Shown here: positions 19,544 to 35,886 of the stretch, piece by piece
Layout of the letters: each line of letters starts with the position of its first letter
How positions within the stretch are numbered: position 1 is the first letter of the stretch
Source of the DNA: Prostheceraeus crozeri
Lineage: Eukaryota > Platyhelminthes > Polycladida > Euryleptidae
NCBI GenBank assembly: GCA_907163375.1
Contig: CAJQUW010014363.1
Location: 434,001-498,000 of the forward strand
Direction: 5' to 3'
Length of the DNA stretch: 64,000 nucleotides
The notes under the pieces: model-generated
The model's database searches: none
What the model was told of the DNA's origin: nothing
The model's input: the letters and a program-made list of their open reading frames with translations, nothing else
Made by a program: the position numbers and the translations under genes

Positions 19544-19742
19544 CTAAGAGTGAGACAAAGTCACTGAAAGAAACGGCTTGTCCATATCTGCCTTACGTTT
19601 AGATGTGAGACGCCATTTAAGATTTTGGGAGATTGACGAAAAACGACAGAGTTAGAATTTCCCAAGAAACAGCTCCAGTGGGCGAATGAAGGCTGGGATT
19701 GGTAAACGGAGGCCAGATTTGGAATCAGCTTGATGTTATTGT

Positions 19743-19790
19743 CCAATGAGGATCATCATCCAATGAGAATCAAGCATTTCTATATAAATA
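19743..19790 (+). promoter_or_regulatory. Polinton left promoter: two CCAAT boxes and TATA
   Basis: CCAAT at 19743-19747 and 19760-19764 precede TATATAAATA at 19781-19790. Transcription would start near 19810, giving an 80-base exon that ends in the ATG at 19889. The same order (CCAAT, CCAAT, TATA) occurs on the opposite strand at 36092-36044. Confidence 0.75.
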
Positions 19791-19888
19791 GCGAGCCTTC
19801 GACAGTGAGAATCATTCCATCATTGAATCACACGAGTGACGGACGCACATTTCCTCTCTCTAGTTCCCTATTCTATTATCCAACTAAA

Positions 19889-20663
19889 ATGGTAAGTCGC
19901 TACTTTCCTCCCTCTCCTCCCTTGAACGTAAACTTAATACAATCTTTTCCATTTTCAGGCATCTACTCCATCTGCTGCACTAGTAGGACAAAATGGCGGT
20001 CAAACGTTACAAGGTTCGCTACGGTCAGATCATCTACAACTGAGGCCAGTGGAAGAAACAACCAAGTTACATAATCCTACACCTCTACAGCGTAAATTTA
20101 AACAAGTCTTGCGTTATGACGATCATGGCGTAGTACTCCAAACGGGAATGCTCCCTTCCACAGATGTCAAGATAATGCACAATCAGTATGGGGACTACAT
20201 ACTGATCCCCGTGAGTCCGTACATTCGCCACCAACTTGATATTATTGAGGAGTACGTGACATTAAATATGGACATTCCTACTCCTCTTGCTCAAGAGTGG
20301 AAGGCGAGAGATGACAAGGATACTCCCTATAGAAAGATTTGGGATGGTAATCAAATTTGCCTACCGGTATCACATTGGTGCACTTATTATAAGAAGGAGG
20401 GAGATCATTCAACACCCATCACATGCGACGAGCTCGGAGAAGGTACTTGGGATATCCTTTTCAAAGTGAATGGGCTATATTATAGTCGGCATAAGGATAA
20501 TAAAATAGCCTCTCTCTCCATGCATATGGAATCCATCCTATATATTCCAAAACCACCCAACGTGGACGACATAATTGATCAAATCCTTAACAGCAGTGGT
20601 ACGAAGCGCAAGTCGGAGAAGAATGCTGCATCAAAACGCAAATCAAAGAAGGAGAATTACTAG
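19889..20663 (+). CDS. Unknown Polinton protein, spliced after the ATG
   Basis: Exon 1 ends AAAATG|GTAAGT, so only the initiator codon (19889-19891) is in it. The intron is 19892-19958 (67 bp, acceptor ATTTTCAG). Exon 2 runs 19959-20663 in one frame, giving about 235 residues that begin M-A-S-T-P-S. Without splicing, the long frame has no ATG near its start, which supports the intron. The C-terminus is a lysine-rich tail (KRKSEKNAASKRKSKKENY), probably a nuclear localisation or DNA-binding tail. I recognise no domain. As the first gene after the TATA box it may be expressed early and strongly. Confidence 0.75.
19892..19958 (+). other. 67-bp intron after the initiator ATG
   Basis: Consensus donor GTAAGT and acceptor TCCATTTTCAG. 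A 67-base counterpart lies at 35886-35820 on the minus strand ahead of polB. Confidence 0.75.
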
Positions 20664-20697
20664 TCCATTCCTAACTCTACCCTATGACAATTCGCTT

Positions 20698-20823
20698 ATG
20701 TGCTTTGAGTGTCGTAGACGTGGTCTTATTAGATACATTTTACTTCTTCGTTGCCATCATATCATTTGTGTATTTTGTCGTGAAAAGCATCGATGTAATT
20801 CTTCATTTTGTAATATGTTATAG
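20698..20823 (+). CDS. RING-like zinc mini-protein, 41 aa
   Basis: Starts MCFECRRRG and carries RCHHIICVFC and CNSSFC, a Cys/His spacing (C..C, C.H..C..C, C) like the core of a RING or treble-clef finger. The longer open frame upstream overlaps the end of the previous gene and is less likely to be used. The similar box RCNHAFCQRC occurs in the protein at 21907-22230. Small RING proteins of viruses often act as ubiquitin ligases, but no partner is visible here. It may also be a fragment. Confidence 0.45.
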   Translation: MCFECRRRGLIRYILLLRCHHIICVFCREKHRCNSSFCNML

Positions 20824-20857
20824 AACGTTTCCTTAGATGTGTAAATTTCCGTTTTAG

Positions 20858-21406
20858 GCTTCTATCATCATTTTTATGGATTGTGAGGGTGAACCTGTAC
20901 AGGAGCTCAGTGCTATTGCCATGAACAATTGGACATATCAGATTGTCAGTGTCTATCATCAACACGACAACTGCAATCCCAATGTTGATCAATGGGCGAG
21001 AAAACACATTCATGGACTTAATCTGAAATATTTGCAAGACTATGGCTTTTCTTGTGAGAGTGCTCTTCTTATTGACTTTAAACGATGGTTAGCTGCTTTC
21101 AATGTTATACGCATCTTTTGTAATAATCCTGGTTAGGAGAGGAAAGTATTTCCCAATCTAATCATTGATGATATTTTGCTCCCACCTTGGGATAGTAGAG
21201 TGAATCAACATTATCATGAAGTCACGATACGTTTTAAGGATTTGTGTGTTCTTATTTTGTCTGTTCGTTGTAGTAGCTACGTTCATAACCAATGCTTCTT
21301 TCCTCCTTACCTCAGCACTGCCAAAGTCCTGTATGGTTATCATTGCTCGCTGTATGATAGTTACCAGCTGTATCTATTTTATCTCTTTCAAACCATTGAT
21401 TTATAA
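20858..21406 (+). pseudogene. DEDDh-type 3'-5' exonuclease-like, one stop
   Basis: The frame is open from the acceptor-like GTTTTAG|GCT (exon start 20858). It contains FMDCEGEP (D.E, ExoI), helical segments (WARKHIHGLNLKYL) and YGYHCSLYDSYQLY, where H-x4-D is the DEDDh ExoIII signature. A TAG at 21134-21136 interrupts the otherwise continuous frame before ExoIII. It resembles an exonuclease-like gene I associate with Polinton-type elements. It could proofread or process DNA ends beside PolB. Spliced from the ATG exon at 19889 it would start M-A-S-I; unspliced it could start at ATG 20876. Confidence 0.65.
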
Positions 21407-21493
21407 TGCATGCTTGTTACTATTATTCAATAAATGTTACTATGAGAAGAGTTGTTGTTTTCATGCAATGGATGGGTTAGATAAAGGGCGATC

Positions 21494-21904
21494 ATGTCTT
21501 TCTCAAACGACTGCGGAACATTACATTTTCATAGGCAAAGTTTAAAAGGAGCTGTTCAAGATTATGTGATAAATTTTCATAAAGATGAGACCGACATCGA
21601 AGCAGTGGTCGATGATGCTAGCACTCTATTTCTAGACTTAATGAATACATTCTCTGATAGCATTGTCATGGCGCGATTAGTTGCGAAAATTAAGTTTAGT
21701 CATTTTGGAAAGGAAGAGGTGGAAATTCGCTCTTTCCATTTTGCTTCTTATTCAATGGAAGTGGTAGATCACCCCGAAGAATTTTTTAAAAGACATATGA
21801 TAAACATTGCTGAACGTCTTAACGCATTTAACCATCATAGTAGCAGTCTAGTGATTGAAGCGATTTCAGATATTCACATTCAACTTTCCATAAAGAAAAA
21901 TTGA
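21494..21904 (+). CDS. Protein resembling the PolB N-terminal region, 136 aa
   Basis: A clean frame from ATG 21494, beginning MSFSNDCGTLHFHRQSLKG. It is rich in alternating hydrophobic residues, and its end (FFKRHMINIAERLNAFN then LVIEAISDIHIQL) resembles the segment before the exonuclease domain of Polinton and adintovirus PolB (a helix, then GS-like, then a strand). I infer a paralogue of, or partner to, that PolB segment, possibly in replication initiation. It lies 4 bases before the next frame's ATG, so the two may share a transcript. The function is not established. Confidence 0.5.
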   Translation: MSFSNDCGTLHFHRQSLKGAVQDYVINFHKDETDIEAVVDDASTLFLDLMNTFSDSIVMARLVAKIKFSHFGKEEVEIRSFHFASYSMEVVDHPEEFFKRHMINIAERLNAFNHHSSSLVIEAISDIHIQLSIKKN

Positions 21905-21906
21905 AA

Positions 21907-22230
21907 ATGCAGTGGTACTTGATTGTGGCACAACTGGTTTTCGAGCTATGTCTGCTCACTCTCGAAGTATATTCCTTCTGTACATGCGTCTATTATTTAG
22001 AAAAGGCTAGCAAATTCATATCTTCAAAAAGACTTGCTATAGACATCAGTAACGGTGAAACTATGTGTGGTGATGTATGTAAGCGAAAGGATGGAAATGA
22101 AAAGCGCATCTTCAAGAGATGTAATCACGCTTTTTGTCAACGCTGTTTCATACGTAATTGCATTCAACTTTGCAAATGTAACCACTGTGATATTGCTTAT
22201 TTCGAGTGTCACTTATGTCGCAATAATTAG
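21907..22230 (+). CDS. Membrane-anchored RING-like protein, 107 aa
   Basis: Starts at ATG 21907, just after the stop of the previous gene. Residues 2-32 are hydrophobic (WYLIVAQLVFELCLLTLEVY and on), a likely membrane anchor or signal. The C-terminal half is a Cys/His cluster (CGDVCKRKDG, FKRCNHAFCQRC, CKCNHC, CHLC) with RING/treble-clef spacing. A membrane-bound RING protein suggests a ubiquitin ligase that modifies host membrane proteins, as some DNA viruses encode, but that is inference. It lies between replication-type and virion-type genes. Confidence 0.55.
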   Translation: MQWYLIVAQLVFELCLLTLEVYSFCTCVYYLEKASKFISSKRLAIDISNGETMCGDVCKRKDGNEKRIFKRCNHAFCQRCFIRNCIQLCKCNHCDIAYFECHLCRNN

Positions 22231-22281
22231 TACCTATGCAAATGTGGTAAAGATAGGTTTTAGCAAAGGCTAACACGGAAA

Positions 22282-22632
22282 ATGGCGAAACGTAAAAGTC
22301 AAAAGTCTTCAAAGTTTTCTTCAGCCATTCAAGCTCTCCGACGAATGAAAGCAAATCAGCGATACAATGCTATACGACATGCCAACGATAAATTCATTCG
22401 TGAAATTATTTCTCATGTCAGAAAGTTGAGGACGAAGAAATTAGCGCCAAAACAACGAAAGTTACTTAAGCGATATGCCACAAAATTGCGTTTCATCTCC
22501 AATCCTAAAGTCACCCTTCAAAGAAAGAGGAAAACTCTAACACAAAAGGGCGGTTTCCTTTCAGCAATACTACCGATGCTAGCTCCTGCCGTGGGCAACC
22601 TATTGGGTAATATCTTTGGCTCTAGACGTTAA
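22282..22632 (+). CDS. Basic virion-type protein with hydrophobic tail, 116 aa
   Basis: Very basic (MAKRKSQKSSKFSS, LAPKQRKLLKRY, LQRKRKTL), with a glycine-rich hydrophobic end (QKGGFLSAILPMLAPAVGNL). Proteins with a KR-rich body and a QKGGFL...LP tail sit next to the ATPase in many Polintons and adintoviruses and are taken as core or capsid-internal proteins. The tail could insert in membranes, as adenovirus pVI does. An acceptor-like GGTTTTAG lies 18 bases upstream. The stop is 31 bases before the ATPase ATG. Confidence 0.7.
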   Translation: MAKRKSQKSSKFSSAIQALRRMKANQRYNAIRHANDKFIREIISHVRKLRTKKLAPKQRKLLKRYATKLRFISNPKVTLQRKRKTLTQKGGFLSAILPMLAPAVGNLLGNIFGSRR

Positions 22633-22663
22633 TTATGCAAATGTTGAATCTCAAAGTATTATA

Positions 22664-23281
22664 ATGGATTTCAGACTTCAATGTGGTAAAGTTCTGACTG
22701 TATCAGGTCCATCTCATGCAGGTAAAACTGTTTTCACGCTGAATTTATTGGATAAAAGAAGGGAGTTGTTTAAGGAACCTATCAATCGAGTGATTTGGTG
22801 TTATGGTATTTATCAACCGTCGCTGTTTCAGGAATTGCAAAGTCGCAACTTTATTCGACATGAAGAAATTATTGCAGTGGATAAACTTCAGTCTAATGAT
22901 GTTGTTGTATTGGATGATTTATTAAAAGAAAGTAAGAATTCAAAAGATGTTACAGATATGTTCACTCGTGCAGCACATCATAAAAGGTGTTTTATCATCT
23001 ATATCACACAAAATTTGTTTCCTGATGGAAAAGAAGCTCGTACACGAGACCTGAATACACACTATTATGCTATTTTCAAGAATCCGCGGGATAAAAGTCA
23101 ATTTGAAATTTTAGCGCGACAAGTTGCACCCAGAGGATCAAAAGCCTTAATTGAAATTTTTCAAGCAGCTACTGAAAAACCATACGGTTACTTATTCATT
23201 GACTTTACGCAAGAGTGTCCGGAAGAATTTAGATTTCGAAGTGATATTTTGAAAACTCCCATGATTATCTACAAACTATGA
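22664..23281 (+). CDS. atp: Genome-packaging ATPase (FtsK/HerA superfamily), 205 aa
   Basis: This enzyme pumps DNA into capsids by ATP hydrolysis. Walker A is GPSHAGKT (residues 15-22) and Walker B VVVLDD (80-85), followed by an Arg/Gln-rich sensor region (YITQNLF). I chose ATG 22664; the frame is open further upstream but overlaps the previous gene. The length is typical for Polinton ATPases. The stop codon overlaps the next gene by ATGA. No damage is seen. Confidence 0.9.
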   Translation: MDFRLQCGKVLTVSGPSHAGKTVFTLNLLDKRRELFKEPINRVIWCYGIYQPSLFQELQSRNFIRHEEIIAVDKLQSNDVVVLDDLLKESKNSKDVTDMFTRAAHHKRCFIIYITQNLFPDGKEARTRDLNTHYYAIFKNPRDKSQFEILARQVAPRGSKALIEIFQAATEKPYGYLFIDFTQECPEEFRFRSDILKTPMIIYKL

Positions 23282-23970
23282 GTTCTTATTCTCGCATGAT
23301 TGTTATTCCTCAGGATGAATATGTACAATTGACTGCCATGCAGCAAGTAAAGCAACCTCTTGCAAATCAAATGTATAGGAAAGAAATAGATTATCAGCAA
23401 AATGTTCACATCAAAGATCCACATCGTGCTGTATTATTACAATCGGAAACTGTTGAGAAATTGAAAAACTTGAAGAATAAGATGCGTGACTCTGTATCGA
23501 CTGCTACACCTTTAGCATCTCGCGCACATGCCATATCTCGTTTCAACAGTATTGAACCCCATCTCAATGTAAATGATAGAGGAGAAATCATTACAGATGA
23601 AAATAAAGTGATTGATGCTTCACGTCATGAAGACTTGATTCAGTATGCGACACGTAGAAAGCGCCGTCAGGGCTATGTTCCACCTGGTTGGTCATACTTT
23701 CTTAAACTATTGAAAAAGCATAATGTACCAAAATTTGCTTTGAATAATGAGACATTGAAAGAACTTGATTCAACAGTGGCTACTGCTCCAATGCTTCAGA
23801 CGATGAAAATGCCAACAAATTGGTTTAAGACGTCAGCTGCTACATCCCCTCCCACACTCACTAAGCAAACAAGAGGAAGAACTCGACGTAGATCTACATC
23901 GCCACTAAAACTAGTAAAAGGAAAACGTAAAACAGCTCCTCCCAGGAAATACATGTTCTCAGACTATTAA
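23278..23970 (+). CDS. Unknown conserved-position Polinton protein, 230 aa
   Basis: Overlaps the ATPase stop by 4 bases (ATGA), so reinitiation or a shared transcript is likely. It begins MSSYSRMIVIPQDEYVQL. It has a central basic RRKRRQGYVPPGW segment and an Arg/Ser-rich, Lys-rich C-terminus (RGRTRRRSTSPLKL). The composition suggests a nucleic-acid-binding virion or assembly protein. I do not recognise a domain. The position between ATPase and integrase is the main clue. Confidence 0.65.
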   Translation: MSSYSRMIVIPQDEYVQLTAMQQVKQPLANQMYRKEIDYQQNVHIKDPHRAVLLQSETVEKLKNLKNKMRDSVSTATPLASRAHAISRFNSIEPHLNVNDRGEIITDENKVIDASRHEDLIQYATRRKRRQGYVPPGWSYFLKLLKKHNVPKFALNNETLKELDSTVATAPMLQTMKMPTNWFKTSAATSPPTLTKQTRGRTRRRSTSPLKLVKGKRKTAPPRKYMFSDY

Positions 23971-23971
23971 T

Positions 23972-24187
23972 ATGAAGCAGATGTGTTGCTTGCCATGTAA
24001 TGAGCCGCCAGAGGTGAATGTCGTCGTCACTTGCACTTGCTGCGCCAGCTCTCACAATGAAACCCCTAAGCAATGTGAACACGATCGCAAAACCGCTAAA
24101 GCTAAATGCTGCAGTTGTTGTAAATGTAGAAAGGCAAGAAAACAAAAAGATGAGAAGGAGAAAAAAGAGTCAGTCGACATCGACTGA
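23972..24187 (+). CDS. Cysteine-rich 71-aa protein overlapping integrase start
   Basis: Starts 2 bases after the previous stop. It contains three Cys clusters (MCCLPC, CTCCASS, CCSCCKCRKARK) and a Lys/Glu-rich end. It overlaps the probable integrase start at 24150 in another frame. The Cys pattern suggests metal binding, perhaps the missing zinc module of the integrase supplied by another frame. It could also be fortuitous. Confidence 0.4.
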   Translation: MKQMCCLPCNEPPEVNVVVTCTCCASSHNETPKQCEHDRKTAKAKCCSCCKCRKARKQKDEKEKKESVDID

Positions 24188-25237
24188 ACGTTTGAAGTCA
24201 ATCTATTATGATGTAAAACATCCGGCAGGATTTGCATCTATCAAGAAATTATCAAAAGCGAGTGGTCTTCCACAATCACAAGTGAAACGATGGTTAAAGG
24301 GTCAGGCTACCTATACACTCTACAAACAAGCGAAAAAGAAATACCGCACCCGCCATTATATTGTTCATGACATCGATGAACAGTGGCAAGGAGATTTGTG
24401 CGATGTTGCCTCCATTTCAAAACATAACTCGGGCAATAATTTTATTTTAACCGTCATTGATATTTTCTCGCGTTATGCGTGGGCTCAACCTTTAAAAACT
24501 AAAGAAGGGAAAGGAGTAGCAAAAGCATTCCAAACAATTTTTCGAGAGGTCGCATTCCAAAAAGAATTCAGAGTGATCAAGGAAAAGAGTTTGAAAGTCA
24601 GAATGTGACAAGATTATTTGAGAGGCATGACATTGAGTTGTTTAGTGTAAAGAGTGATTATAAAGCTGCACTCGTTGAACGTTTTAATCGCACATTAAAA
24701 AATCGCTTGTGGCGACATTTTACTGCCAACTTGACACAAAATTGGACAAAGGTTCTACAAGATACACTCCATGCCTACAATCACTCTATCCATCGTTCTA
24801 TTGGACTCAGACCAGTAGATGTAAATGCTGACAATGTAGATAAAGTGCGCGAATCATTCCAACGTAAACGCACTCATGTGAAAAGTGATGTGAAAATTGG
24901 TGATAAAGTTCGTATCTCAAAAGTGAAGAGTGTTTTCGCTAAAGGGTACCTTCCGAATTGGACAGAGGAGGTATTTACAGTATCAAGGATTAATCAAAAA
25001 GACTCTCCGACCACCTCCAAGTTGAAAGATTATGATAATGAAGAAATTGAGGGTAGCTTTTACCGCGATGAGATTGAGGTAGTCACTGAAAGTGAAACAT
25101 ATTTGGTAGAGTAAATCATTCGATATAAAAAACGGCAAGGTGAAGAATGGTGTCTTGTTAAATGGACTGGTTATCCTTCAAGTATGAACTCTTGGATGCG
25201 TCGTTCCGACATCTTTCATCTAAGTGATCGACAGTGA
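24150..25237 (+). pseudogene. int: Retroviral-type integrase with chromodomain, broken
   Basis: The DDE integrase would insert the element and make the 6-bp duplication. It starts MRRRKKSQSTSTERLKSIYY. Catalytic residues are Asp in QWQGDLCDV, Asp in SDQGKEFESQ and Glu in ALVERFNRTLK. Two lesions are visible: a one-base frameshift near an A-run at about 24560-24570, between the first and second Asp, and an in-frame TAA at 25112-25114. After the TAA the same frame continues as a chromodomain (EEWCLVKWTGYPSSMNSW) to the stop at 25235-25237. Chromodomains on Polinton integrases are thought to guide insertion to marked chromatin. The copy should be inactive. Confidence 0.9.
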
Positions 25238-25278
25238 TTCATGCAAAGTTGTAAATAACAATGTTTAGGGTTTGAGTT

Positions 25279-25605
25279 ATGAATCCAACTGCCTCATTTT
25301 ATTCACGACCCTCCTATGTAAGTGGTGGAGGACAAATTTACATTGGCGCTCGCCGCCAACGTGGAGGTAGCATACTTGGTGCACTGAAATCTGTTGTAGC
25401 ACCTCTCATATCCAATGTCGGTAGATCTTTAAAACGAAATGTTTTAAGTAATGCCGTTGGCTTTGCTGGTGATGTTGCTAGTGATCTTTCCAGAGGTAGA
25501 AGTTTTAAGAGCAGTTTGTTGAATCGTGGGAAGGAACGCGGTTTAAAAACATTGAAGCAGACCTTTGCTGGTGTTACTCAAGGAAAAAATCACCTAAACG
25601 AATGA
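25279..25605 (+). CDS. Glycine-rich small virion-type protein, 108 aa
   Basis: Contains YVSGGGQIYIGARRQRGGSI followed by an amphipathic stretch (LKSVVAPLISNVGRSLKRN) and DVASDLSRGRSFKSSL. The arrangement resembles small adintovirus/Polinton virion proteins compared with adenovirus pVI or pX, in which an amphipathic helix disturbs membranes. It is placed directly before the capsid gene, with a 4-base stop/start overlap (ATGA) to the next small frame. The role is inferred from position and composition. Confidence 0.6.
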   Translation: MNPTASFYSRPSYVSGGGQIYIGARRQRGGSILGALKSVVAPLISNVGRSLKRNVLSNAVGFAGDVASDLSRGRSFKSSLLNRGKERGLKTLKQTFAGVTQGKNHLNE

Positions 25606-25733
25606 AAAAAGGAAGGAGGAAACATCGTGGAGCTGGTAAGGTGCGATCTTCAGTCAAAAGGCATTCACGCAAACGTCGCAGAGGCTCTAATCATTCATCA
25701 GGCGCTAAACGACGACGCTGCCATAACTTCTAA
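25602..25733 (+). CDS. Protamine-like basic peptide, 43 aa
   Basis: A short frame starting MKKGRRKHRGAGKVRSSVKR, with about half of all residues Arg, Lys or His and a RRR-containing end. Its ATG overlaps the previous stop (ATGA) and its stop lies 2 bases before the capsid ATG, so it is tightly packed in the virion-gene block. The composition and location fit a DNA-condensing core peptide like adenovirus mu/pVII. It is too short for most ORF tables, and homology cannot be shown by eye. Confidence 0.55.
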   Translation: MKKGRRKHRGAGKVRSSVKRHSRKRRRGSNHSSGAKRRRCHNF

Positions 25734-25735
25734 TC

Positions 25736-27013
25736 ATGGAGTGTAAAACTTCCGGTTTTTGTTTGTTTGATCAACAAGCCATACAGACAGATATTCTTAG
25801 TTCAAGTATTGTAGATTATCATCCTCGAACAGCTGAGAATGCTGGCCCCATTGAATTTGTTATTCCTGGTGGTAGTGATGACTACATAGATTTGAGTTAT
25901 GCGATGGTTGATTTGAGGTTTAGAATTCAGCAAGCAGATGGAACTGCTATTGACGATACACATAAAGTTGGACTGAACAATTTACCATTGACTACATTAC
26001 TTCGTGATGTTTCTCTAACGATTGGAGAGCAGCAGGTGGAAGGTGGTCAAAGCGATTATCCCTATAAATCATATTTCAATCATGTATCACAGTTTCATCC
26101 AGCAGCACAAAAAAGTCATATGGAAGCTATGGGATGGTACAGAGATGAAGCAGGAAAATTTGATGTTGAAACAAACAGTGGCTTTGTAAAGCGATCTGCT
26201 ATGATTAAAGATAGTAGAGTATGTCAGCTATATGGTCCGCTGAATTTAGACTTCTTTAGACAGTCAAAGTTTTAACTCTGTAATACCAGCATGCGACTCA
26301 AGCTGACATTGAATAAGCCTGAATTTGCGCTGAATGCATTTGCTAAAGTTGACAATTTTGGAATTCATGTGGAAGATATTGCACTTTACATTCGTCGAGT
26401 AATACCGAATCCAAGTGTCATTAGAGGACATGCTGAAGGTCTTAACCGCCAAAATGCCATTTACCCCGTTCAGCATACAAAGCTTCTCACCTTTACAATT
26501 CCTAAAGATCAAAAGAGTTTCATGAAAGATGGCCTCTTTCCATCGGAAGCACCGAAGCTCCTCATGGTGGCAATGGTTGAAAATGATGCATTTAATGGTA
26601 ATATAAAGAAGAATCCTTTCAATTTTAAACACAATCAGTTAAGTGAAATTGCTTTACGTGTAAATGGTGTGAGTCATCCTGGTCCACCCTACAAACCAGA
26701 TTTTGCTTCGGATCAATTTATGCGCAGTTATGTTGATTTTATGGATGTCTTTGGCTTTTACAATACGGATGACACCAACGGACTCACTATGAAAGAGTTT
26801 AAGAGTGGATATTCTATTTATGCATTCGATTTGACTGCTGACAGCGATATTAGTGCCCCCTATCGTCAAGCGAACGTGCCTCATAATATTCGTTTGGATT
26901 TGACGTTCAAAAGAACACTACCTGACACGATCAATGTATTAATTTATGCAGTCGTCGATTCAAATATTGAAATTACAAAGTATCGTGACGTGATTCTTCA
27001 GTATAATCGTTAA
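25736..27013 (+). pseudogene. mcp: Major capsid protein (double jelly roll), one stop
   Basis: One frame of 425 codons with a single TAA at 26273-26275. The N-terminal part carries motifs typical of Polinton capsid proteins: IEFVIPGGSDDYIDL, an LRDVSLTIGEQQVEGG turn, and PYKSYFNHVSQF. The C-terminal part has NVLIYAVVDSNIEI just before the end. Two stacked jelly-roll domains would form the hexon-like capsomer. The frame is preserved on both sides of the stop. The next gene starts one base before the stop codon ends (TAATG). It should be non-functional unless the stop is read through. Confidence 0.88.
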
Positions 27014-27474
27014 TGAGTTGGTTGACTGCTGACGATATTAAGACTAAAGTGCAGCGTAATGCAGACGAAGCGACGTTGAAATCTTTCGATAATGTCTATT
27101 CACTCGATACCTTACCACCTGCAGTAAATCACTATCCCATCTTTATTGTGCTAAACACTCAGTCGCAGAATTTAGGCGGTGAGCATTGGAAAGCGATCTT
27201 TATTGGAGAAGACCGACGTGGTGAACTATTTGACTCTCTTGCTCAACCTCCAAATATACCAACACAGCAGTGGTTGAGAAAACATACGCGTCAATATCAG
27301 CGAAATGAACGCATACTACAACATCCACTGTCATCAACGTGTGGTGCTTTTGTACTGTACTTCATCTTAAAACGTTTACATGTATCTCGATTTGTATCTA
27401 TTATTCAAAACTTTTCATGTAATCCATCCTCTAATGAAAAAATGATTTGTAAGTTCTATCATGATTTGAAATAA
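27013..27474 (+). CDS. pro: Adenovirus/Ulp1-type cysteine protease, 153 aa
   Basis: The capsid maturation protease of Polintons. The catalytic order is His58 (GGEHWKAIF), Asp74 (GELFDSLAQPP), Gln103 (QHP) and Cys110 (SSTCGAFVLYF), the order of adenovirus protease. The start overlaps the capsid stop (TAATG). The frame is intact. Its TAA stop lies inside the polyadenylation signal AATAAA (27470-27475). Confidence 0.9.
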   Translation: MSWLTADDIKTKVQRNADEATLKSFDNVYSLDTLPPAVNHYPIFIVLNTQSQNLGGEHWKAIFIGEDRRGELFDSLAQPPNIPTQQWLRKHTRQYQRNERILQHPLSSTCGAFVLYFILKRLHVSRFVSIIQNFSCNPSSNEKMICKFYHDLK

Positions 27475-27505
27475 AAACATCATGTTGGAAAAATTGTTTT
27501 TTATT
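27470..27505. terminator. Back-to-back polyadenylation signals sharing stop codons
   Basis: AATAAA at 27470-27475 (plus) contains the protease stop TAA. Its mirror image, TTTATT at 27500-27505 (AATAAA on minus), contains the stop of the leftward TBP-like gene. The two convergent transcripts end within about 30 bases. Confidence 0.7.
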
Positions 27506-28046
27506 TTACAATCCGCTGGCTACGTACATACTCGATGAGATAGTCTAGGATCACATTTGCTTGTACATGAGATTTTAATCCAGTAATGATCACTTTACTA
27601 TTATGAAAGATTGCCACATGCACAGGTAACCAACAACTAATGAGAGCTGCAGGAAAAAGTTCGGGTTCATAACACAAATTGTAACTGCTGGTACGAATCT
27701 TCAAAAATGATACACTTTCACTCAATTGAGTAGAGATCACCATATTGTCCACAGTCAGATTCGACATCACACACCTCTCCCTCTTCCATATCCGACGTAG
27801 TAGTCTTTGTAGCTCTAAGCGCATTGACTGCGCCGATGAATGAGAAAGGGCGCCGAGAATCTGTACAGTCCCATTTGGGAAGAGTTGAAGATTCCGTGAA
27901 TTGTTCATCTTCACCACTAACATTTGAGGTCGGCCCGGGTAATACTTGCTGTTGGGAAGGTGTTGGTGTAATGTTGCGAGATCGATTTTGGTGTAGAGTC
28001 TGAAGCGACGGAGAATGTTGACGATGGTGTAGCGATGGCGCTTCAT
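27501..28046 (-). CDS. TATA-binding-protein-like factor, 181 aa
   Basis: Start at ATG 28046, giving exactly the size of a TBP core. Two pseudo-repeats are visible. Repeat 1 has IVNILRRFRLYTKIDLATL, YYPGRPQMLVVKM and LQLFPNGTVQILGALS. Repeat 2 has LCYEPELFPAALI and VAIFHNSKVIITGLKS. These match the TBP pattern of NIV, DL, YxPxxF, liF.sGk..iTGaks. Of the four Phe that kink the TATA box in TBP, three are present (LFPNG, ELFP, AIFHN) and the first (in KRF) is Pro. It should bind TATA-like DNA, perhaps redirecting polymerase II to the element's own strong TATA boxes. The frame is intact. It overlaps the upstream gene's extension. Confidence 0.85.
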   Translation of the reverse strand: MKRHRYTIVNILRRFRLYTKIDLATLHQHLPNSKYYPGRPQMLVVKMNNSRNLQLFPNGTVQILGALSHSSAQSMRLELQRLLRRIWKRERCVMSNLTVDNMVISTQLSESVSFLKIRTSSYNLCYEPELFPAALISCWLPVHVAIFHNSKVIITGLKSHVQANVILDYLIEYVRSQRIVK

Positions 28047-28368
28047 GATGAAAAAATGAGTAAATTGAGCGATGTACCTTCCTTTTATACTTTTCCCAAC
28101 TACCTTGATGAAATGTGAAGTTAGTATGGAGTTGGGAATGATAGAGTTGAATTCGCCGTTTGTTGACGCGCAACCAGATGCGATTTCCAATACGTGAATG
28201 TCTTTTCATATAGAAGTATTTCAAATCCTTCATGATATGATGTAGAGATTGAAAATGACGATAAGATAAAGCAAACTCTCTTCTCACATTTCCAGTTGAA
28301 TCTTTGAAATAGACGTTTCGATCATGATCCGTTTCAATACGTTGTAGGGAATCTAATTTCCAACTCAT
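27718..28368 (-). CDS. Small paralogous protein B (PC4-like?), with long overlap
   Basis: The first ~105 residues match the neighbour at 28391-28747: both have W-LDSLQ-I at the start, NV.FK.S.G, then L..R.F..L..IM.DL.YF and WEKY.R..HRSI. The rest (from about 28050 down) overlaps the TBP-like gene in another frame and is Ser/Gln-rich, so it may be a fortuitous extension. The strand-strand-helix order (charged hairpin, then ITLT..QF..L) is reminiscent of the PC4/p15 single-strand-binding fold, but this is a guess. Its position directly upstream of a TBP-like gene supports a transcription role. Confidence 0.5.
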   Translation of the reverse strand: MSWKLDSLQRIETDHDRNVYFKDSTGNVRREFALSYRHFQSLHHIMKDLKYFYMKRHSRIGNRIWLRVNKRRIQLYHSQLHTNFTFHQGSWEKYKRKVHRSIYSFFHHEAPSLHHRQHSPSLQTLHQNRSRNITPTPSQQQVLPGPTSNVSGEDEQFTESSTLPKWDCTDSRRPFSFIGAVNALRATKTTTSDMEEGEVCDVESDCGQYGDLYSIE

Positions 28369-28390
28369 GGTGCGTGGTAGTCATGTCTAA

Positions 28391-28747
28391 TTAAGATTTG
28401 CATAGTAGGGCGATGAACTCAAGACGAATAAATGTCATGATGGAGCGATGTATGTATCTTCTATACTTCTCCCAATTGTATTTGCGAAATGAGAAACAGT
28501 TTGCGGAATGAGAATGGCAGATTTGAATTTCATTTCTGTAATGTTGAAGCCAAACTTGATCACCCAAGGAGATGAATCTTAATGTTTCAAAATATTCCAA
28601 ATCCCTCATGATATCATTGAGGTTGACAAATTGTCGCCATGTTAATGTAATACCTCTTGATGTATGACCATGAGAATTTTTGAAATGTACGTTTCCATTA
28701 CGATCAACTCTGATATATTGAAGAGAGTCCAAAATCCAAGTCTTCAT
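28391..28747 (-). CDS. Small paralogous protein A (PC4-like?), 118 aa
   Basis: Clean frame starting MKTWILDSLQYIRVDRNGNV, with GITLTWRQFVNLNDIMRDLE and NWEKYRRYIHRSIMTFIRLE. About 40 percent of aligned positions agree with the following leftward gene, so this is a tandem duplication. The two halves of the protein themselves look alike (strands followed by a W/F-helix). It is first in a leftward set of three genes ending with the TBP-like gene, and diverges from the rightward gene at 28783 across only 35 bases. Confidence 0.6.
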   Translation of the reverse strand: MKTWILDSLQYIRVDRNGNVHFKNSHGHTSRGITLTWRQFVNLNDIMRDLEYFETLRFISLGDQVWLQHYRNEIQICHSHSANCFSFRKYNWEKYRRYIHRSIMTFIRLEFIALLCKS

Positions 28748-28782
28748 GATGTTATGTAAAGCCGCAGATCAGCAATATCAAA

Positions 28783-30180
28783 ATGTCGTTTTATCATATT
28801 TTGCTTAGCAATGCGGCCGCAAATAGATTTGCTAGCAATCGAGCCGCACTCTTTTCTACTCCCATTGATCATGAGCAACAGCTAAATGGAAAGTGGGAAG
28901 TGGGTGTCACTCAACTTGTTCATAGCAACTGTGTCTATACTTTTGATCATGAGGTGATGATTATCAATATGAGACGCACAGCTGCTTACCAATGTGAAAA
29001 GGGCTACCGAGTATACTTTCCACAGTGGCCAAAGAAAGATCTCTTATCATGTAAAAAGTTTATATATGATTTCTTGAATAAAGCGTGTAAACATATTGCC
29101 CAATTTACTCCGCACAATGATGATCATAATTATGTACATCATGTAGTTGAGAAAGATTGGATTGTTGGTTTAAGTCCAAGTTTAAGAAATGATTTAGGTT
29201 ACCTCGCTAGCTCCTTAACAAGCTATGATAATTATAACGTTAATTACCACCCAAGTGGTCATAAACAGTTAATATATCGAGAGGAAGCTTATTATGTAGA
29301 TCTTATTCCAAAAAATGAGAAGACGTTTGTGAAGAAGATTGTGATTAAGCCAAGAAAGACAAACATGACTCCTGAAACATTATTGAAGAAATTTAATTAT
29401 CTCCTTCGAGTTGATGGTAAACAAGTGGCAACATTGACTTATATCAAATCATCTAATAATATTGCAATAAGTAAATTAAATGATGATGATCTAGTATTAG
29501 TTTGTTCAAAAGATTTTCATCAGTTCTTACGACATCGTTCTGCAGCTGTTCATGGAAAATTTGATATGCAACATTTACCATGTGAAAGGTCAAATCAATT
29601 TGATACAGAATGGGCCGTATCTTTATACAGAAAGTGTGTAGAGCCTTTCGGTGGTGTCTTACATGAAACAAGAGTGTTGATGCCTCGCATTATTACTTCA
29701 GTTAAATTGGTTGTAGATTATTTAAATGAAGTGATTAATGAGCAACAAATTTCATTTTCTGAAAAAGAAGGTGTTTTGTCTCTCACTATAAGTGAAAAAT
29801 GTATTGAACTAATTATGGATGAAACTCTAATGGACATTTTGGGTTTTGATCAAAATATCTTTAAAAGTGGTACTGTAACCAAAGCTAGCGCAGACATGTC
29901 ACTATCGCGTCGTATTAACCATTTTCAGATATATTCCAATATTGGTGAAGATGTACGTGTGGGAGATGTTGAAGCTCCATTGCTAGCAATGATACCATAC
30001 CAGCCAAAAAGCTGCAGTATTTTATCTGAGCATACTTTCAAGAAAGTGCATTATACAAAGCTGAAATCAAACTACATCCCACAAATTGATATTGCAATTT
30101 ATGACGATGCTGGTGCGTTGATTCCTTTTCATAAAGATGCTGTGACAAGTATCACACTCCATTTCCGAATGAAGAGTTAA
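28783..30180 (+). CDS. Candidate minor capsid/vertex protein 1, 465 aa
   Basis: An intact rightward frame beginning MSFYHILLSNAAANRFASNR, with NGKWEVGVTQLVHSN. A start of the form F...L.SN.....F..N.......L...L.G.WEVG is a recurring signature of a Polinton protein family that I take to be capsid-associated (minor capsid or vertex). The remainder is beta-rich. A second, damaged member follows at once. The divergent promoter space to the leftward gene is about 35 bases, so the regulatory sites must overlap coding or be minimal. Confidence 0.6.
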   Translation: MSFYHILLSNAAANRFASNRAALFSTPIDHEQQLNGKWEVGVTQLVHSNCVYTFDHEVMIINMRRTAAYQCEKGYRVYFPQWPKKDLLSCKKFIYDFLNKACKHIAQFTPHNDDHNYVHHVVEKDWIVGLSPSLRNDLGYLASSLTSYDNYNVNYHPSGHKQLIYREEAYYVDLIPKNEKTFVKKIVIKPRKTNMTPETLLKKFNYLLRVDGKQVATLTYIKSSNNIAISKLNDDDLVLVCSKDFHQFLRHRSAAVHGKFDMQHLPCERSNQFDTEWAVSLYRKCVEPFGGVLHETRVLMPRIITSVKLVVDYLNEVINEQQISFSEKEGVLSLTISEKCIELIMDETLMDILGFDQNIFKSGTVTKASADMSLSRRINHFQIYSNIGEDVRVGDVEAPLLAMIPYQPKSCSILSEHTFKKVHYTKLKSNYIPQIDIAIYDDAGALIPFHKDAVTSITLHFRMKS

Positions 30181-30219
30181 TGCAAAAGTATGCTAATATA
30201 TTTTTCCAATGTGAATAAT

Positions 30220-31740
30220 ATGGAAAGTGAAAATAAGGACTCGTTTCTAATCTACTTGCCCAGTAATGCTTCTATGAATAAATTTCCCAAAAATAAACCA
30301 TCAGACTATCGAGTAGAATTAAATCGCCCACTACATTTAGAAGGTGAACGGGAGGTTGGCGTTTCTAGTATTTGCTATGATAGCAATATTCAGAATGTGA
30401 ATGATTTGGAAGAAATGATATTGACTCCTCGCACCCATGATGGAATAACGATGAATAATGCATTCCAGTTCCCATACAATTTAACATCAGATGGAAAGTG
30501 GAACTATGAATGGATTCAGATAAAATCAGATTATTATGAACCATTTGGGAATGAGAAAATTATTTAGGCATTCAATAGTGGTAATACTTCCATCATGAAG
30601 AATAAAAATCAGAAAGTTTATGAGTTTACTATCTATCATTGGAGTGGGAGACAGTTCCTTCGCTTTCATTCTTTTACTAAAGGTCTTACGCTGAGGTTGG
30701 ATAATGAATTCTATCCACATCTTGGTTTTGGCCATGGACTACATCTAACGTCAATTGCTACTGCAAATGTTAAAAAAGTTTATTCAAATCGAATCAACAA
30801 ATTTCATTATTAATTTAAAATATTTGATGAAGATGTTGTAGAATGCGAAGAACGCATCATTTTGAAAAAGCGTGGTGTTCAACCTTTATCACTTATTGAG
30901 TTAGTAAAACGATGGAATGAGACTGTGGGTAAGAAGTATGGAGAGAAAATTATGGCGGACAAAAATAAGTTGGTTATTCAGAAATATAATGACAAACTTA
31001 CAGTTTATTTCTCTCCAACCTTGCGTCATTTTGTAAGACATCCAACCCCTATTATTGGAAGCGGTCTGGTGTATGCTTCTCATGAATATCACACTAAAGC
31101 TGATTCAGTTAATGATGAATGGTGGGTTGACACCTATGGTGATCGCATCAAGAAAATTTACCAGTCTTATCAAGAATCCAAAGTTGCTATCAATATAATG
31201 CCGCGTCTATATCATACAGTTGAAAGCTTCATTCATGTAGTAAATCCTTATATACAACAGAAGTTGAAGCATGTGATGAAAAGTAAATATGATGTAAAGA
31301 CACACCACATTTCGTTTTCAATTGAAAATCAACGCGTTGTTCTGAAACTGGGTGATGACATTCAATGTCAATTGAGTAAAAATTTGAAAAAACTCTTTGG
31401 TTTTTCAATGCTACAAACTGTGTTTACTGCTGCGCATACGATTGGTATAGAAACACCAATGACACTTGATAAACATGAACAGCACCTTTACATTCAAAGT
31501 GATTTGATTCTTCTTATTTCTGTTGGTGAGAAAAAAGAATACATTTTACGTGATTTCATTCATGATAAAGACGCTTCATATGGAATAGTCGAGAAGATGT
31601 TTGAATCTATTTTCTATCATCCCGTCGTCAAACAAACTATACCCTCTATTGCTATCAAAATTACCAATGGTTTACAAGAGTGCATCCATGTGAAAGATAC
31701 TAAATCCCTCGTAACTTTAGTGTTTCGGAAAACAAAGTGA
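30220..31740 (+). pseudogene. Candidate minor capsid/vertex protein 2, two stops
   Basis: A paralogue of the preceding gene by its opening pattern (DSFLIYLPSNASMNKFPKNK, EGEREVGVSSICYDS) and overall length. One frame runs through, interrupted by TAG at 30565-30567 and TAA at 30811-30813 without frameshift. An alternative ATG at 30190 is in frame. AATAAA for its transcript is at 31764-31769. A pair of such genes suggests two distinct virion components, for example vertex and fibre. Confidence 0.6.
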
Positions 31741-31763
31741 AGTCATTGTGATATGTTTATTGA

Positions 31764-31769
31764 AATAAA
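31764..31769 (+). terminator. Polyadenylation signal AATAAA
   Basis: AATAAA 24 bases after the stop of the rightward gene at 31740. The leftward polB ends at 31920, so the two converge here. Confidence 0.6.
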
Positions 31770-31919
31770 AATATGTATATGAAAAAGTCTTTTCACAGAT
31801 ATAGGGGGAATGAGCTGACTGTAGGCATATATTCACAAGGAAGAAGCGATCTCATGCGATACATAAAACAACCATGTATATATACAAAAAGCAACATCAA
31901 AATACTGAGTTAAAGTTGA

Positions 31920-34900
31920 TTATGTCAATACATCTCCTGAATGTGGTAGCGTGAGTTTTATTCTTTTGGGTGGAGGTATGTTTGTGTGAGGATGTCCATG
32001 TGGAAGAGATGTGTTATGTCCTATCCAACACCTCTTATCCTCCCATGCTGAAAGCGCTCGTTTCTTGAACGTGTGCGTTTTCACAGTATGAACTTGAGAT
32101 TTTAAGATTGTCATATTGACAAACGTTATAGTTTTATTTTTATAGGCCTTCTTATAGGACCGATGTTTCATTTTGTGAACAATGGATTTTGATATACCTT
32201 TAGCACGCTTAATACTATCTGCACATTCTTTTAATTTCATGGAATACATTTTAGGACGGAGGAGAATCATTTCATCTATTTCCTTTCCTGCTGTTTCATC
32301 CTTAAAACAACCAAGTTTGGCTTTATTCTGTATGGAATAGAGTGGATGAGTGGGATTGTAGTTAGATGTGTCGAAATATTTTTCTAATGACTTGCCTACT
32401 TCATTAAACTTTAAATCTTTTTGAGTGGTAATTCCTAAAATGAAACTATCTGTATCACCACCCAGCAAGCGAACCTCTTTTACGAGAGGGCATGGTTTTA
32501 ATATTTTGTAGAAGAGTTGATACATTTCAAGCTTGGAATAATCTAAAACGGCTTGCCCAATATAGATGGGTTTGCACAACTCAGCTTCTGATTTTATCAT
32601 TTTAACACCTACAAGATCCTCATCGATGATGTCTCCATCAATGAAAAGAGGTGATGAGGTCAATTTGTGATATTTTTGTTCATCAACGACTAGTTTGTAG
32701 TTCATACGTTTTCTAACATCCTCCATGGTCTTTCCGAAAAGACTGTTATTCTTATATTTATAAAAATCCTTTTCAAAATTATTTTGGGCGAGTGCACGTT
32801 TTTGACTGTTACTATCTATGTAGGGTTTGAGGAAGGCTTTCTGTCTAAATTTGATAATGCGGTGAACTGACTTTAGAAGCATGCCCATTTCTAAATAGAA
32901 TTTTAGTATGCAGAAGTGTACGAGATAATTTTTCTTATCATATTGGGTGAGTAAAAGTTTGCGGCATGGTTTGTACCTTGGCGGTCCACACTCTGTTAAG
33001 TTATTATGAAATTGTGACATGAATGGTGAAAACATATCTTCAGTCACTTCACCAGATTCAGGTGCGAGTGGGAAATCAGCAGTTTTATTTTTAATGCTAT
33101 TTGGATAAATCAAATCCACTTCAAAATAATATCCCCAATCACCTTCACCTGGAATCTTCAGTATGTTTGAAGGGTTGGAGTAATACTCAAGCTCATCTTG
33201 ATTTAACCAACTAAACTCGGAATGAGGTAGTGGTTTAGACAGTGAACTGCCATATAAATTATTTTGGTCATAGTACTTTAGGTGGATATGATCATCACCT
33301 ACTGTTTCAGATTTTATATGATGTTTATTTTCAAATGTGAGACCACCGCGTATTCCGCGCTCAAATATAATATACATCTCCGGGTCTTGTAAGAGATGAA
33401 TGGTCTCACCAGTCATTTTAAAGGCTGATTTAAAGGACATGGCTGGTAGACTGACAAAGTGGACAGGATCTAATTTGTCTTCTTCTAATGCCACTCGTCG
33501 AAATTCCTGAAAGACATCAGCCAGCAAAGTGACATCTAATTCTAAGTAAGCGATCATATAATCGCCAAACGTTTTACAATCAAATTTTAACCATGCCTCT
33601 TGAGCATGTTCATAATCTTCTACTGGACAATCTTGACCCGTCAAATCGTTTTGGAATTTGTCAATGGAAGGAAGGGTTGTTTCATTTAGTTTAGACATTG
33701 AGCTAAAATACGCATAAGGAAAGACTCCTTTGCGAGTGATTATTTCATCCGTTAAGTTTGGATAGTGTTTCTTCAAAGTTTGACTATGGGGAAGAAACTT
33801 GAGATTACGAACGAGAGAAGCTAGTGACGCTGACATGAATTGGAATGAATCTAAAAATTTTATTTCGAAGAAGACTGTCTTATTTTCTTTAGTTTTATCT
33901 ACTGGTACTTTTGCTGTCATTGCCATGAATTTTTCCCTCGTTTGCGCTATTACATTAAACTGCCACGATTTTATCTGGCTCAACCCTCCTTTTATGAGCA
34001 TATGACTGTCATAGCCCTTAAAGTTATGAAAAATGACGGGTAGTACACGACGTCGCAACCTAAGTGAAAAGTTACATTTGGAGCAGAGTGCGTTTCTAAA
34101 TTTACCAGTGATGTGATCATGATCACGCACTTTCTTAATTTTATCGTCATCAAACGTTTTATGACATTTAGGGCACGATGTGCAACTTTCAAATTTTTGT
34201 TTGTCTTCATCTGACATATGTAGTGACTTACACTGCAATTGGGAATCATATGATTGTTGAAATTTAGCAGTTTTATCGAGAAATTCTAGAAATTTTGAAA
34301 TGCAATCTTCACCTTGCCAAGTATGCATTTTGTTTTGTCTATTCCTAAAGTGGTCATGCCATACTTCATCGCAGGATATGGCTGCTGGCTTGTGGATGAT
34401 ATCATCAATGTAGCATTCTATGTCTGCGTAAATGACACGCAGGGGACTTAATTCGTCACCATTATCCCTATGTGAAAATATTTTATCTTTGGGCATGCGT
34501 TCCATTTGGAATTTACCTCGCTTGCACCATTCATAGTGAGTTTCAAATTTATCTTTACTCCAAAAGGAGCGGATGCAGCGGTCGCATACAAAATGTTCAC
34601 CTCTTTCAGAGTGCCCCAAGTGAGTGTACAAGCGAGAGATTTTGGGAATACCACAGTAGTGCCATTCCTCGCTATCATCTTATTTTACTAATAAGAGGTT
34701 GACTACACGTTCATAACAAGTTGAACGTGAATTATAGCGGGCACCCTTCAACCCCTTCTCCCACACGTGAACGACAATTTTAATCTTATTATGTTTTTCG
34801 AACGTTTCTACATCTTTGATTTTCATATTGTTACTATCACAACCTTCAAAGTCTAGTTCATCCTCCCACTGTCTATAGCTATAGGTGCGATCTCGGTGCG

Positions 34901-35715
34901 CGTTGATATCATTATAGTGAAGGATGGATAGGACTGCATATTTGAAACACTGTGATTTACAATCGACATTGATGACAGCTTTCTTATTATACAACGTTTT
35001 TGGTAGTTTAAATGTGCCTCGAGCTGCATGACTTTCTAATAGGGAAATTTTGAATATGGCTGAGTCCACACCATCAACAATGAGAGCGCTGTCGCGTTGA
35101 TTGAATTTATCTACATTTGATTTTAAACATTGAATGTGAAAATTTAGACTCGCAGTCTACAACTTCGGTTGCGGGAGAGGAAGGAACATGAAACTGTATT
35201 CTCTCCGTCACTTGACCCGTTTGAAAATCTATCTTAATATATTTTAGTTTAAGGTAGATGAGCGCCTTCATTCTAAAATTGTCTAAATTGTTGAAGAGCG
35301 CTTCGATAATGTTAGAATTTTGAAGGAGCCACTCAGGAAAGTCTACTATTTGAGTACTGGACTCCATGCAGTAGTCGCGTACTAAATTATTATGTGAAAC
35401 ATTAATGAGGGAGATGGTAGAGGTACCGCTGGTGTAGTGATCATTTGCATGCGTGTGTTGAAGTCTGTGCGAAGATCGCTGAAAGTGACTATCAAAAGAA
35501 AGAGGGCACAAATCGCAAGGAAAGGAGATGTCATCGTCAGAATCAACTTCACCTCCGGAGATTGACGCCGCTTTGCGTTGACACACACGTTGTTTGATGT
35601 GTCGAAGGAGACTGTGCTTCCTTGTAAACATATGTCCGCAGTCGGCACATTCCCACGCGTTGCCTTGTCGCGAGAGTCCTGAGCTGGAACTCACATCACT
35701 TGAAAGAGAAATCAT
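31920..35715 (-). pseudogene. polB: DNA polymerase B (protein-primed type), two lesions
   Basis: Replicates the Polinton from its ends. The N-terminal frame (35715-35107) has two C2H2 fingers (CADCGHMFTRKHSLLRHIKQ and CDLCPLSF...H...H). Next comes a segment with KSQCFKYAVLSILHYN (35069-34680), then 903 open codons. In the latter are a C2H2 finger (15-36), Exo I D70/E72, an endonuclease-VII-like insert (CPKC, DHDHITG 170-176), Exo II NFKGYD 203-208, Exo III Y362/D366, palm A around D455, KNNSLFG 627-633 and DTDS 726-729. Lesions are a frame change near 35110-35150 and an in-frame TAA at 34680-34682. The remaining frame is intact. Confidence 0.9.
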
Positions 35716-35819
35716 TCTATCATCTCTGTTCAAGTCTCAGTGTATTGTTACAACCTACTTTGACTCAACAACTCTAAACTTTCCTCGAGAAGGGAGGGCG
35801 TTGGTGATGAAGTTGATGC

Positions 35820-35886
35820 CTGAAATTGAGGAAGATGCTATTATCCACACGTTTGAGGGAGATGAGTGAAGAAATTTTCAACTTAA
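35820..35886 (-). other. Candidate 67-bp intron ahead of polB, donor altered
   Basis: On the minus strand ATG (35889-35887) is followed by TTAAGT where the left promoter has GTAAGT. After 67 bases comes AATTTCAG and then GCATCAACTTCATCA, close to GCATCTACTCCATCT at 19959. The length equals that of the left intron. The donor GT is TT here, so splicing may be lost in this copy. The downstream frame (M-A-S-T-S-S...) is closed by a TAA after 23 codons and does not connect directly to the zinc-finger frame. Confidence 0.45.

What the first reader, a model, noticed from the sequence alone, without database searches (positions are those of the whole stretch)
27501..28046. Polinton encodes a TBP-like transcription factor
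A 181-residue intact frame inside the Polinton shows both pseudo-repeats of a TATA-binding protein, with YxPxxF-, liF-sGk- and TGxkS-type signatures and three of the four DNA-intercalating Phe. The element's promoters carry strong TATA boxes. An own TBP would let it control host polymerase II or work when host TBP is limiting. I do not know of a well-described Polinton TBP; giant DNA viruses are the usual example.
Basis: partly seen in the sequence, partly recalled or inferred. Interest (0 to 1): 0.9.

Follow-up and report, generated by a model that had tools for sequence, protein, structure and literature searches.

The report
TATA-binding protein inside a Polinton
A virus-like jumping element in an animal-sized genome carries its own altered copy of TBP, the protein that marks where genes start, apparently keeping the docking point for the cell's machinery while changing half of its DNA-reading face.

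The parts
27501..28046 (-). TBP gene, 181 aa; repeat 1 about residues 6-85, repeat 2 about 97-175
   Evidence: Pfam PF00352 E 1.2e-20; AlphaFold2 pLDDT 96.3; Foldseek and VIA-align to TBPs; 62 homologues
27718..28368 (-). 216-aa ORF (O216) whose last 108 codons are overprinted on TBP repeat 1 in another frame; its first 112 aa are a tandem paralogue of the 118-aa ORF
   Evidence: Chance of the frame staying open 2.8e-5 and paralogy 42% E 2e-29; same overlap in lineages B and C
28391..28747 (-). 118-aa ORF (O118), paralogue of the N-terminal part of O216, function unknown
   Evidence: model poor, pLDDT 46
27013..27474 (+). adenain/Ulp1-like cysteine protease, tail-to-tail with the TBP gene (26 bp apart)
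   Evidence: Peptidase_C48 E 0.0011, 19.3 bits, just under the cut-off of 20.7; of 54 relatives 2 carry PF00770 and 2 PF02902
25736..27013 (+). probable major capsid protein region, interrupted by an in-frame stop
   Evidence: identity as capsid protein recalled from Polinton layout, no Pfam hit
22664..23281 (+). packaging-ATPase-like gene
   Evidence: Pox_A32 E 0.012, below cut-off; phrog_6891 ATPase E 0.0027
24018..25114 (+). retroviral-type integrase region, reading frame interrupted in this copy
   Evidence: first piece only: rve E 0.0011, below cut-off; phrog_8463 transposase E 1e-4
31920..34631 (-). probable family B DNA polymerase with Endonuclease_7-like N-terminal domain
   Evidence: PF02945 E 3.1e-6; polymerase motifs recognised by eye (recalled)
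19066..44133 (.). whole Polinton, 25,068 bp, ends AGTAGTAAG...CTTACTACT
19060..19065 (.). target-site duplication ATCACT, left copy
44134..44139 (.). target-site duplication ATCACT, right copy
28083..28089 (-). TATAAAA 43 nt upstream of the TBP ATG, inside O216; similar TATA at -47 in L056 (lineage B) and -43 in L070, L071, L080 (lineage C)
22236..22242 (+). ATGCAAA, one of six ATGCAA sites within 60 nt upstream of a gene start (others: 21463+, 22635+, 25241+, 28403-, 30180+)
   Evidence: not found in lineage B

Best explanation
The gene encodes a divergent TBP that belongs to this group of Polintons. SHOWN by computation: TBP fold, membership in a distinct clade, recurrence in several Polinton lineages of one genome, retention of repeat 2 and of both TFIIB-contact glutamates, and replacement of the repeat-1 DNA face by a different conserved set of residues. 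INFERRED: the protein enters the nucleus, binds a promoter element whose half under repeat 1 differs from a standard TATA box, docks host TFIIB through the C-terminal stirrup and so brings host RNA polymerase II to Polinton genes. Because the basic N-lobe patch used by host regulators is not conserved, it would largely escape TFIIA, TAF1, NC2 and Mot1 control. Its own gene may be switched on by host TBP through the TATAAAA box lying in the overlapping ORF.
Against: No expression, DNA-binding or TFIIB-binding data. The candidate promoter motif ATGCAA (6 of 18 gene starts) was not within 90 nt upstream of any lineage B orthologue seen, including the five whose lineage A counterparts carry it (o21494, o22282, ATPase, o25279, O216), so there is no recognised target site. 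Selection within copies is not significant in the parts unaffected by how copies were ranked (repeat 2 in A dN/dS 0.64, p 0.24; repeat 1 in C 0.63, p 0.15). The lower value of 0.20 comes from copies ranked by TBP protein score and is biased. Among less selected copies the frame is not always open: stops or frame-changing indels occur in a few of 13 A and 9 C copies. Pro at the F99 position could mean weak DNA bending. Lineage D has Lys, not Gln, at the V122 place.
Confidence: 0.6

Rival explanations
1. It is functionally an ordinary TATA-binding TBP: the repeat-1 changes are tolerated and it reads the same TATA boxes as host TBP, simply supplying more TBP during element replication.
For: Repeat 2 keeps its recognised DNA-contact residues except yeast L205 (Ala/Thr) and V213 (mostly Ile); TATAAAA or TATAAAT lies upstream of the TBP gene itself in lineages A, B and C and TATAAAA upstream of the o20148-like gene in lineage C.
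Against: The repeat-1 changes are not free drift: Pro40, Q62 and Q54 are nearly fixed in 87 diverged rows. Most gene starts in the element have no TATA within 200 nt (2 of 18 do, one being TBP itself).
Confidence: 0.17
2. It is a decoy or repressor: it keeps the TFIIB-docking stirrup but does not bind promoters well, so it titrates host TFIIB (or TFIIB-related factors) and damps host transcription.
For: Both TFIIB-contact Glu conserved (86 and 87 of 87) while half of the DNA face is changed.
Against: A pure decoy should lose DNA contacts in both repeats; repeat 2 and F56 (87 of 87) and N10 (72 of 72 ungapped) in repeat 1 stay fixed. Conserved new residues suggest a new site, not loss.
Confidence: 0.13
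3. A TBP-fold nucleic-acid-binding protein with no role in transcription initiation, for example in genome packaging or replication.
For: In lineages A, B and D the gene lies beside the capsid/protease module.
Against: A conserved TFIIB-contact pair would have no purpose; in lineage C the gene lies elsewhere, facing PolB.
Confidence: 0.07
4. A recently captured, dying host TBP copy inside this one element.
For: The element is partly degraded (integrase and capsid frames interrupted).
Against: 19-26% identity to solved cellular TBPs; clade support 100/100 with 87 rows; 150 near-identical full-length copies without stops, this one included, and three further lineages in the same genome; the host TBP exon L053 is canonical and distinct.
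Confidence: 0.01

Closest known systems
Canonical eukaryotic and archaeal TBP (PF00352; e.g. 7o4i_O, 1cdw, 2z8u)
   Different: Only 19-26% identical; repeat-1 F99 to Pro, L114 and V122 to Gln, T124 to Leu or another hydrophobic residue; basic N-lobe patch not conserved
TBPs of giant viruses and mirusviruses (e.g. Heterosigma akashiwo virus A0A1C9C511; mirusvirus TBP in PMC10132985, passages)
   Same: Virus-encoded TBP fold
   Different: Those viruses are far larger and mostly bring their own TFIIB, with variable TFIIB-contact residues (PMC7221094 passages; a megavirus, PMC11464507 passage; CpV-BQ1, PMC12085832 passage). Here the element is 25 kb with no recognised TFIIB, and the contact residues are nearly invariant. 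Identity in the 50 structural alignments shown is 7-21%
TBP-related factors TRF2/TLF of animals (recalled)
   Same: TBP-fold paralogues with altered DNA-intercalating residues that act on non-TATA promoters (recalled)
   Different: Host genes; not compared here by sequence, so a relation is neither shown nor excluded
Animal Polintons/Mavericks/adintoviruses
   Same: 6-bp target duplication, inverted termini, integrase-, protease-, ATPase- and polymerase-like genes
   Different: Searches for TATA and TBP in the main texts of seven Polinton, Maverick or adintovirus papers found no occurrence: PMC8097293, PMC3671162, PMC10120064, PMC11071308, PMC11071296, PMC6035795, PMC10675110

Membership tests
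TBP superfamily (PF00352) | Profile match above the curated cut-off | tested here: met
   73.6 bits against 22.9
TBP superfamily (PF00352) | Two tandem pseudo-repeats forming one saddle | tested here: met
Canonical TATA-binding TBP | Four intercalating Phe | tested here: not met
   three of four; the yeast F99 equivalent is Pro in 80 of 81 ungapped rows. So it is filed as a TBP-superfamily member, not as a canonical TATA-binding TBP
Canonical TATA-binding TBP | Sequence-specific TATA-box binding | not testable with these tools
   needs a binding assay
Canonical TATA-binding TBP | TFIIB-contact Glu pair in the C-terminal stirrup | tested here: met
   E127 86 of 87, E129 87 of 87; role of the pair from PMC7221094 passages
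Canonical TATA-binding TBP | Conserved basic patch on N-lobe helix 2 | tested here: not met
   P0001 columns 77, 78, 81, 85: commonest residues L14/R13, E45/K14, H19/Q16/R10, R21/Q14/K10 of 87; assignment of these columns to the patch is recalled
Giant-virus type TBP | Encoded with a viral TFIIB-like protein | tested here: inconclusive
   no TFIIB match among the element ORFs scanned with Pfam, but not every ORF or interrupted frame of the element was scanned
Polinton/Maverick | Terminal inverted repeats with AG...CT ends and 6-bp target duplication | tested here: met
Polinton/Maverick | Adenain-like protease | tested here: met
   C48 E 0.0011 just below cut-off, adenovirus endoprotease C5 E 0.038; of 54 relatives 2 carry PF00770 and 2 PF02902
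Polinton/Maverick | Retroviral-type integrase | tested here: inconclusive
   rve E 0.0011, 19.6 bits under the cut-off of 32.6, on the first, uninterrupted piece only
[quoted passage not shown]
   only the Endonuclease_7-like domain scored; polymerase motifs seen by eye
Polinton/Maverick | Double jelly-roll major capsid protein | not tested

The most novel reading that the evidence does not exclude
An animal virus-like element has evolved a re-specified TBP: it keeps the port for host TFIIB and polymerase II but reads a private core-promoter element, giving the element its own promoter class (early genes with TATA read by host TBP, later genes read by the Polinton TBP). Each Polinton lineage would have its own pair of TBP and promoter element, which would explain why ATGCAAA is found in lineage A and not in lineage B. 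The TBP gene is further locked to a second protein by a roughly 330-nt overprint.
Probability: 0.3. Interest if true: 0.92.

Novelty: new variant of a known kind. Interest (0 to 1): 0.78.

Why it matters
TBP is usually treated as a fixed, host-owned part. Here a 25-kb element with no recognised TFIIB or RNA polymerase of its own carries a TBP that has diverged in half of its DNA face while preserving the host docking site. If it works as inferred, it is a natural example of re-specified core-promoter recognition inside an animal cell, and it makes a question directly testable: can a TBP with a new repeat 1 define a private promoter class using host TFIIB? It also gives a handle on how Polintons time their gene expression, and a marker gene for finding this Polinton group.

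Tried and rejected
Searches for relatives with context outside this genome gave nothing: viral contigs with P0001, alignment A1, PolB, a capsid piece and a protease alignment, prokaryote genomes, phage records. These scans start from a few short peptide patterns, so they can miss distant relatives. An alignment of 20 other TBPs found 4 viral contigs; the two translated keep the canonical repeat-1 residues and are not close relatives.

Idea that ATGCAAA is the family's promoter element: enriched in the window's element (best 6-mer, 6 of 18 starts; 1 of 500 random sets as good for 6-mers and 7-mers, but 35 and 82 of 500 for 8-mers; 5 and 15 of 500 shuffled sets for 6-mers and 7-mers; the opposite-strand control there is uninformative by construction). 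Across the whole window the motif is not enriched. It is not within 90 nt upstream of any orthologue listed for lineages B, C or D. Kept only as a lineage A lead.

Idea that TBP is under detectable purifying selection among recent copies: dN/dS 0.20 over 48 copies is biased because most copies were ranked by TBP score; in regions not used for ranking it is 0.63-0.64 and not significant (the protease of the same A copies gives 0.27, p 1.4e-5). Constraint is therefore claimed between lineages only.

O118 as PC4-like or PUR-like: model pLDDT 46; PUR-alpha hits at E 0.12-0.28 are not evidence; no family or convincing structure hit. Left open.

Recent capture of host TBP: rejected.

Full report

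WHERE IT LIES. The element is 19066-44133, 25,068 bp, beginning AGTAGTAAG and ending CTTACTACT, flanked by ATCACT on both sides. It carries an adenain/Ulp1-type protease, an integrase-like region, an A32/ATPase-like gene and a large minus-strand gene with an Endonuclease_7-like domain and polymerase-like motifs (several scores are below the curated cut-offs, and the polymerase and capsid assignments lean on recalled layout). Integrase and capsid regions are interrupted in this copy. The TBP gene is tail-to-tail with the protease, 26 bp apart.

IT IS NOT A ONE-OFF. A protein search gave 62 relatives, all with PF00352; the profile search gave further members (1687 hits, best 120 listed, many of them ordinary TBPs). 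Contexts are not shown by that tool, so I used the length of the longest contig as a fingerprint. Of 54 protease clusters 10 have exactly the contig length of one of 101 TBP clusters, against 1.0 expected from 600 shifts (most 4). For contigs of at least 2 kb it is 8 of 29 against 0.21 (most 2). One of the ten (1771 bases) is probably coincidence, as its protease is only 40% identical while its TBP is 82%.

THE SAME GENOME. The window lies in a 2.05-Gb genome of 14,165 contigs. With P0001 as query, 150 of 11,874 first-look candidates were scored, and all 150 listed rows, this copy included, are full length, 98-100% identical and without stops (ranked by score, so a lower bound on number and biased towards intact). 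With the Pfam TBP model, 150 of 10,982 were scored and 30 loci fetched. Of these 30, 26 are Polinton-type TBPs that I sort into four lineages: A, window-like, 13; B, 3; C, 9; D, 1 (B-D are 39-47% identical to P0001). The other 4 did not match P0001 by tblastn. One of these, L053, is a canonical TBP exon with NPKRFAAVIMRI and ALIFSSGKMVCTG, taken as the host gene; L054 looks like a degraded TBP-like copy. Protease was found in the flank of 16 of 26 loci (12 of 13 A, 3 of 3 B, 1 of 1 D, 0 of 9 C). In B the order capsid-protease-TBP-O216-penton-like gene equals that of the window except that O118 was not found; in C the O216-TBP pair lies between an o20148-like gene and PolB. Gene names there are from blastp against the window's ORFs.

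WHAT HAS CHANGED IN THE PROTEIN. Over 87 family rows against 30 other TBPs (15 half-length rows were left out), repeat 2 keeps N101, V103, F131, F147 and T155 almost without exception, and the stirrup keeps E127 and E129. Repeat 1 keeps N10 and F56 but has Pro40 for yeast F99 (80 of 81 ungapped), Gln54 for L114 (76 of 87), Gln62 for V122 (87 of 87) and Leu (79 of 87) or another hydrophobic residue for T124 (no Thr in 87). Yeast numbers and their DNA-contact roles are recalled; F116 (N.L5.1) and the TFIIB role of the Glu pair are in PMC7221094 (passages). Lineages B and C show Pro, Gln and Gln at the three places; D has Lys at the V122 place (read). The same paper reports that viral TBPs conserve the first Glu in only about 40% and usually come with a viral TFIIB. 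Here the pair is nearly invariant and no TFIIB-like ORF was recognised among those scanned. The tree puts all 87 rows on one side of a branch with 100/100 support and very long separation from 18 other TBPs. Animal TRF factors were not in the set, so the origin is not resolved.

AN OVERPRINTED ORF. The 216-aa ORF 27718-28368 begins upstream of TBP and runs on in another frame over the first 108 TBP codons. Given the TBP protein and the element's codon usage, such a frame stays open with probability 2.8e-5. An O216-like ORF overlapping TBP was listed in 2 of 3 B loci and in 4 of 4 C loci examined (of 9); five of these six were compared with O216 by blastp and matched, E 1e-5 to 7e-14 (L072 was not compared). 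Of 15 half-length database relatives, 14 begin at the Met near residue 93-94 and one about six residues later, as expected if gene callers prefer the overlapping ORF (inference). Against a strong role, the ORF is intact in only 36 of 48 copies in which TBP is intact in 48 (TBP-ranked), and its tail shows no constraint of its own among recent copies (dN/dS 1.15-1.96), so TBP is the better constrained frame. The part before the overlap gives 0.55, 0.45 in A and 1.13 in C.

PROMOTERS. Of 18 gene starts, chosen by me from the ORF list, 2 have TATAWAW within 200 nt. ATGCAA is the most enriched 6-mer within 60 nt (6 of 18 starts, 12 sites in the whole element), but it is absent upstream of the orthologues seen in lineages B, C and D, so it is at best lineage-specific. 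TATAAAA (or TATAAAT) lies 43-47 nt before a TBP ATG in A, B and C; it falls in O216 codons for Tyr-Lys, so protein constraint may explain it.

MECHANISM AND LIMITS. The most economical reading is an alternative TBP that borrows host TFIIB and polymerase II with changed DNA preference. Steps shown: fold, clade, linkage, residue pattern. Steps inferred: nuclear entry, DNA target, TFIIB binding, activation, escape from TFIIA/TAF1/NC2/Mot1. The N-lobe patch assignment to helix-2 columns is recalled. Selection within recent copies is inconclusive, and some copies there carry stops or frame-changing indels in TBP.

LITERATURE. Ten paper searches were made; seven of them asked for TBP, TATA or TFIID terms together with Polinton or Maverick terms or viral TBP, the others for neighbouring topics. 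No listed title or abstract start reports a Polinton TBP. Terms were looked up in the main texts of PMC11071308, PMC10120064, PMC3671162, PMC8097293, PMC6035795, PMC10675990, PMC10132985, PMC11071296, PMC7221094, PMC10675110, PMC11464507 and PMC12085832, and only the passages shown were read. Where they mention a TBP outside cells it is that of a giant virus or other large DNA virus, a mirusvirus, or a mirus-like insertion. PMC7786948, PMC10558129, PMC11125864 and PMC9341512, listed for both terms, were not opened. The library holds open-licence papers only; the original adintovirus and first Polinton papers were not seen.

Noticed in passing
window 27718-28368 (-) over 27501-28046 (-): Long same-strand overprint: the O216 ORF stays open over TBP repeat 1 for 108 codons (chance 2.8e-5) and the arrangement recurs in two other Polinton lineages.
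   Followed up: partly
window 28391-28747 and 28045-28368 (-): Tandem paralogues (42% identity) of unknown fold upstream of TBP; the low-confidence model alternates strands and helices and weakly recalls PUR repeats.
   Followed up: partly
window 38604-41209: A piggyBac-type element nested in the Polinton: identical 17-bp ends TTAACACTAGAACCGCC in inverted orientation around a DDE_Tnp_1_7 transposase, 39104-40795.
   Followed up: partly
G000: The genome holds at least 150 near-identical copies of this TBP, which suggests a recent large Polinton expansion.
   Followed up: partly
L054/L061 (G000:C3829): A second, canonical-looking but degraded TBP-like stretch with a stop, perhaps a processed copy of the host TBP.
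   Followed up: no
window 21463, 22236, 22635, 25241, 28403(-), 30180: ATGCAA sits within 60 nt upstream of six of 18 gene starts in the right orientation; exact TATGCAAAT occurs three times in the window, each before a Polinton gene.
   Followed up: partly
window 44511-45638 and 47484-48233: Tyrosine-recombinase-like ORFs (DUF3504 in both, Phage_integrase below cut-off in the first, QRICH1 above cut-off in the second) lie to the right of the Polinton, probably Crypton-type elements.
   Followed up: no
P0191: A Polinton-type protease is filed in NCBI under a Pseudomonadota metagenome bin, probably a contaminating animal contig.
   Followed up: no
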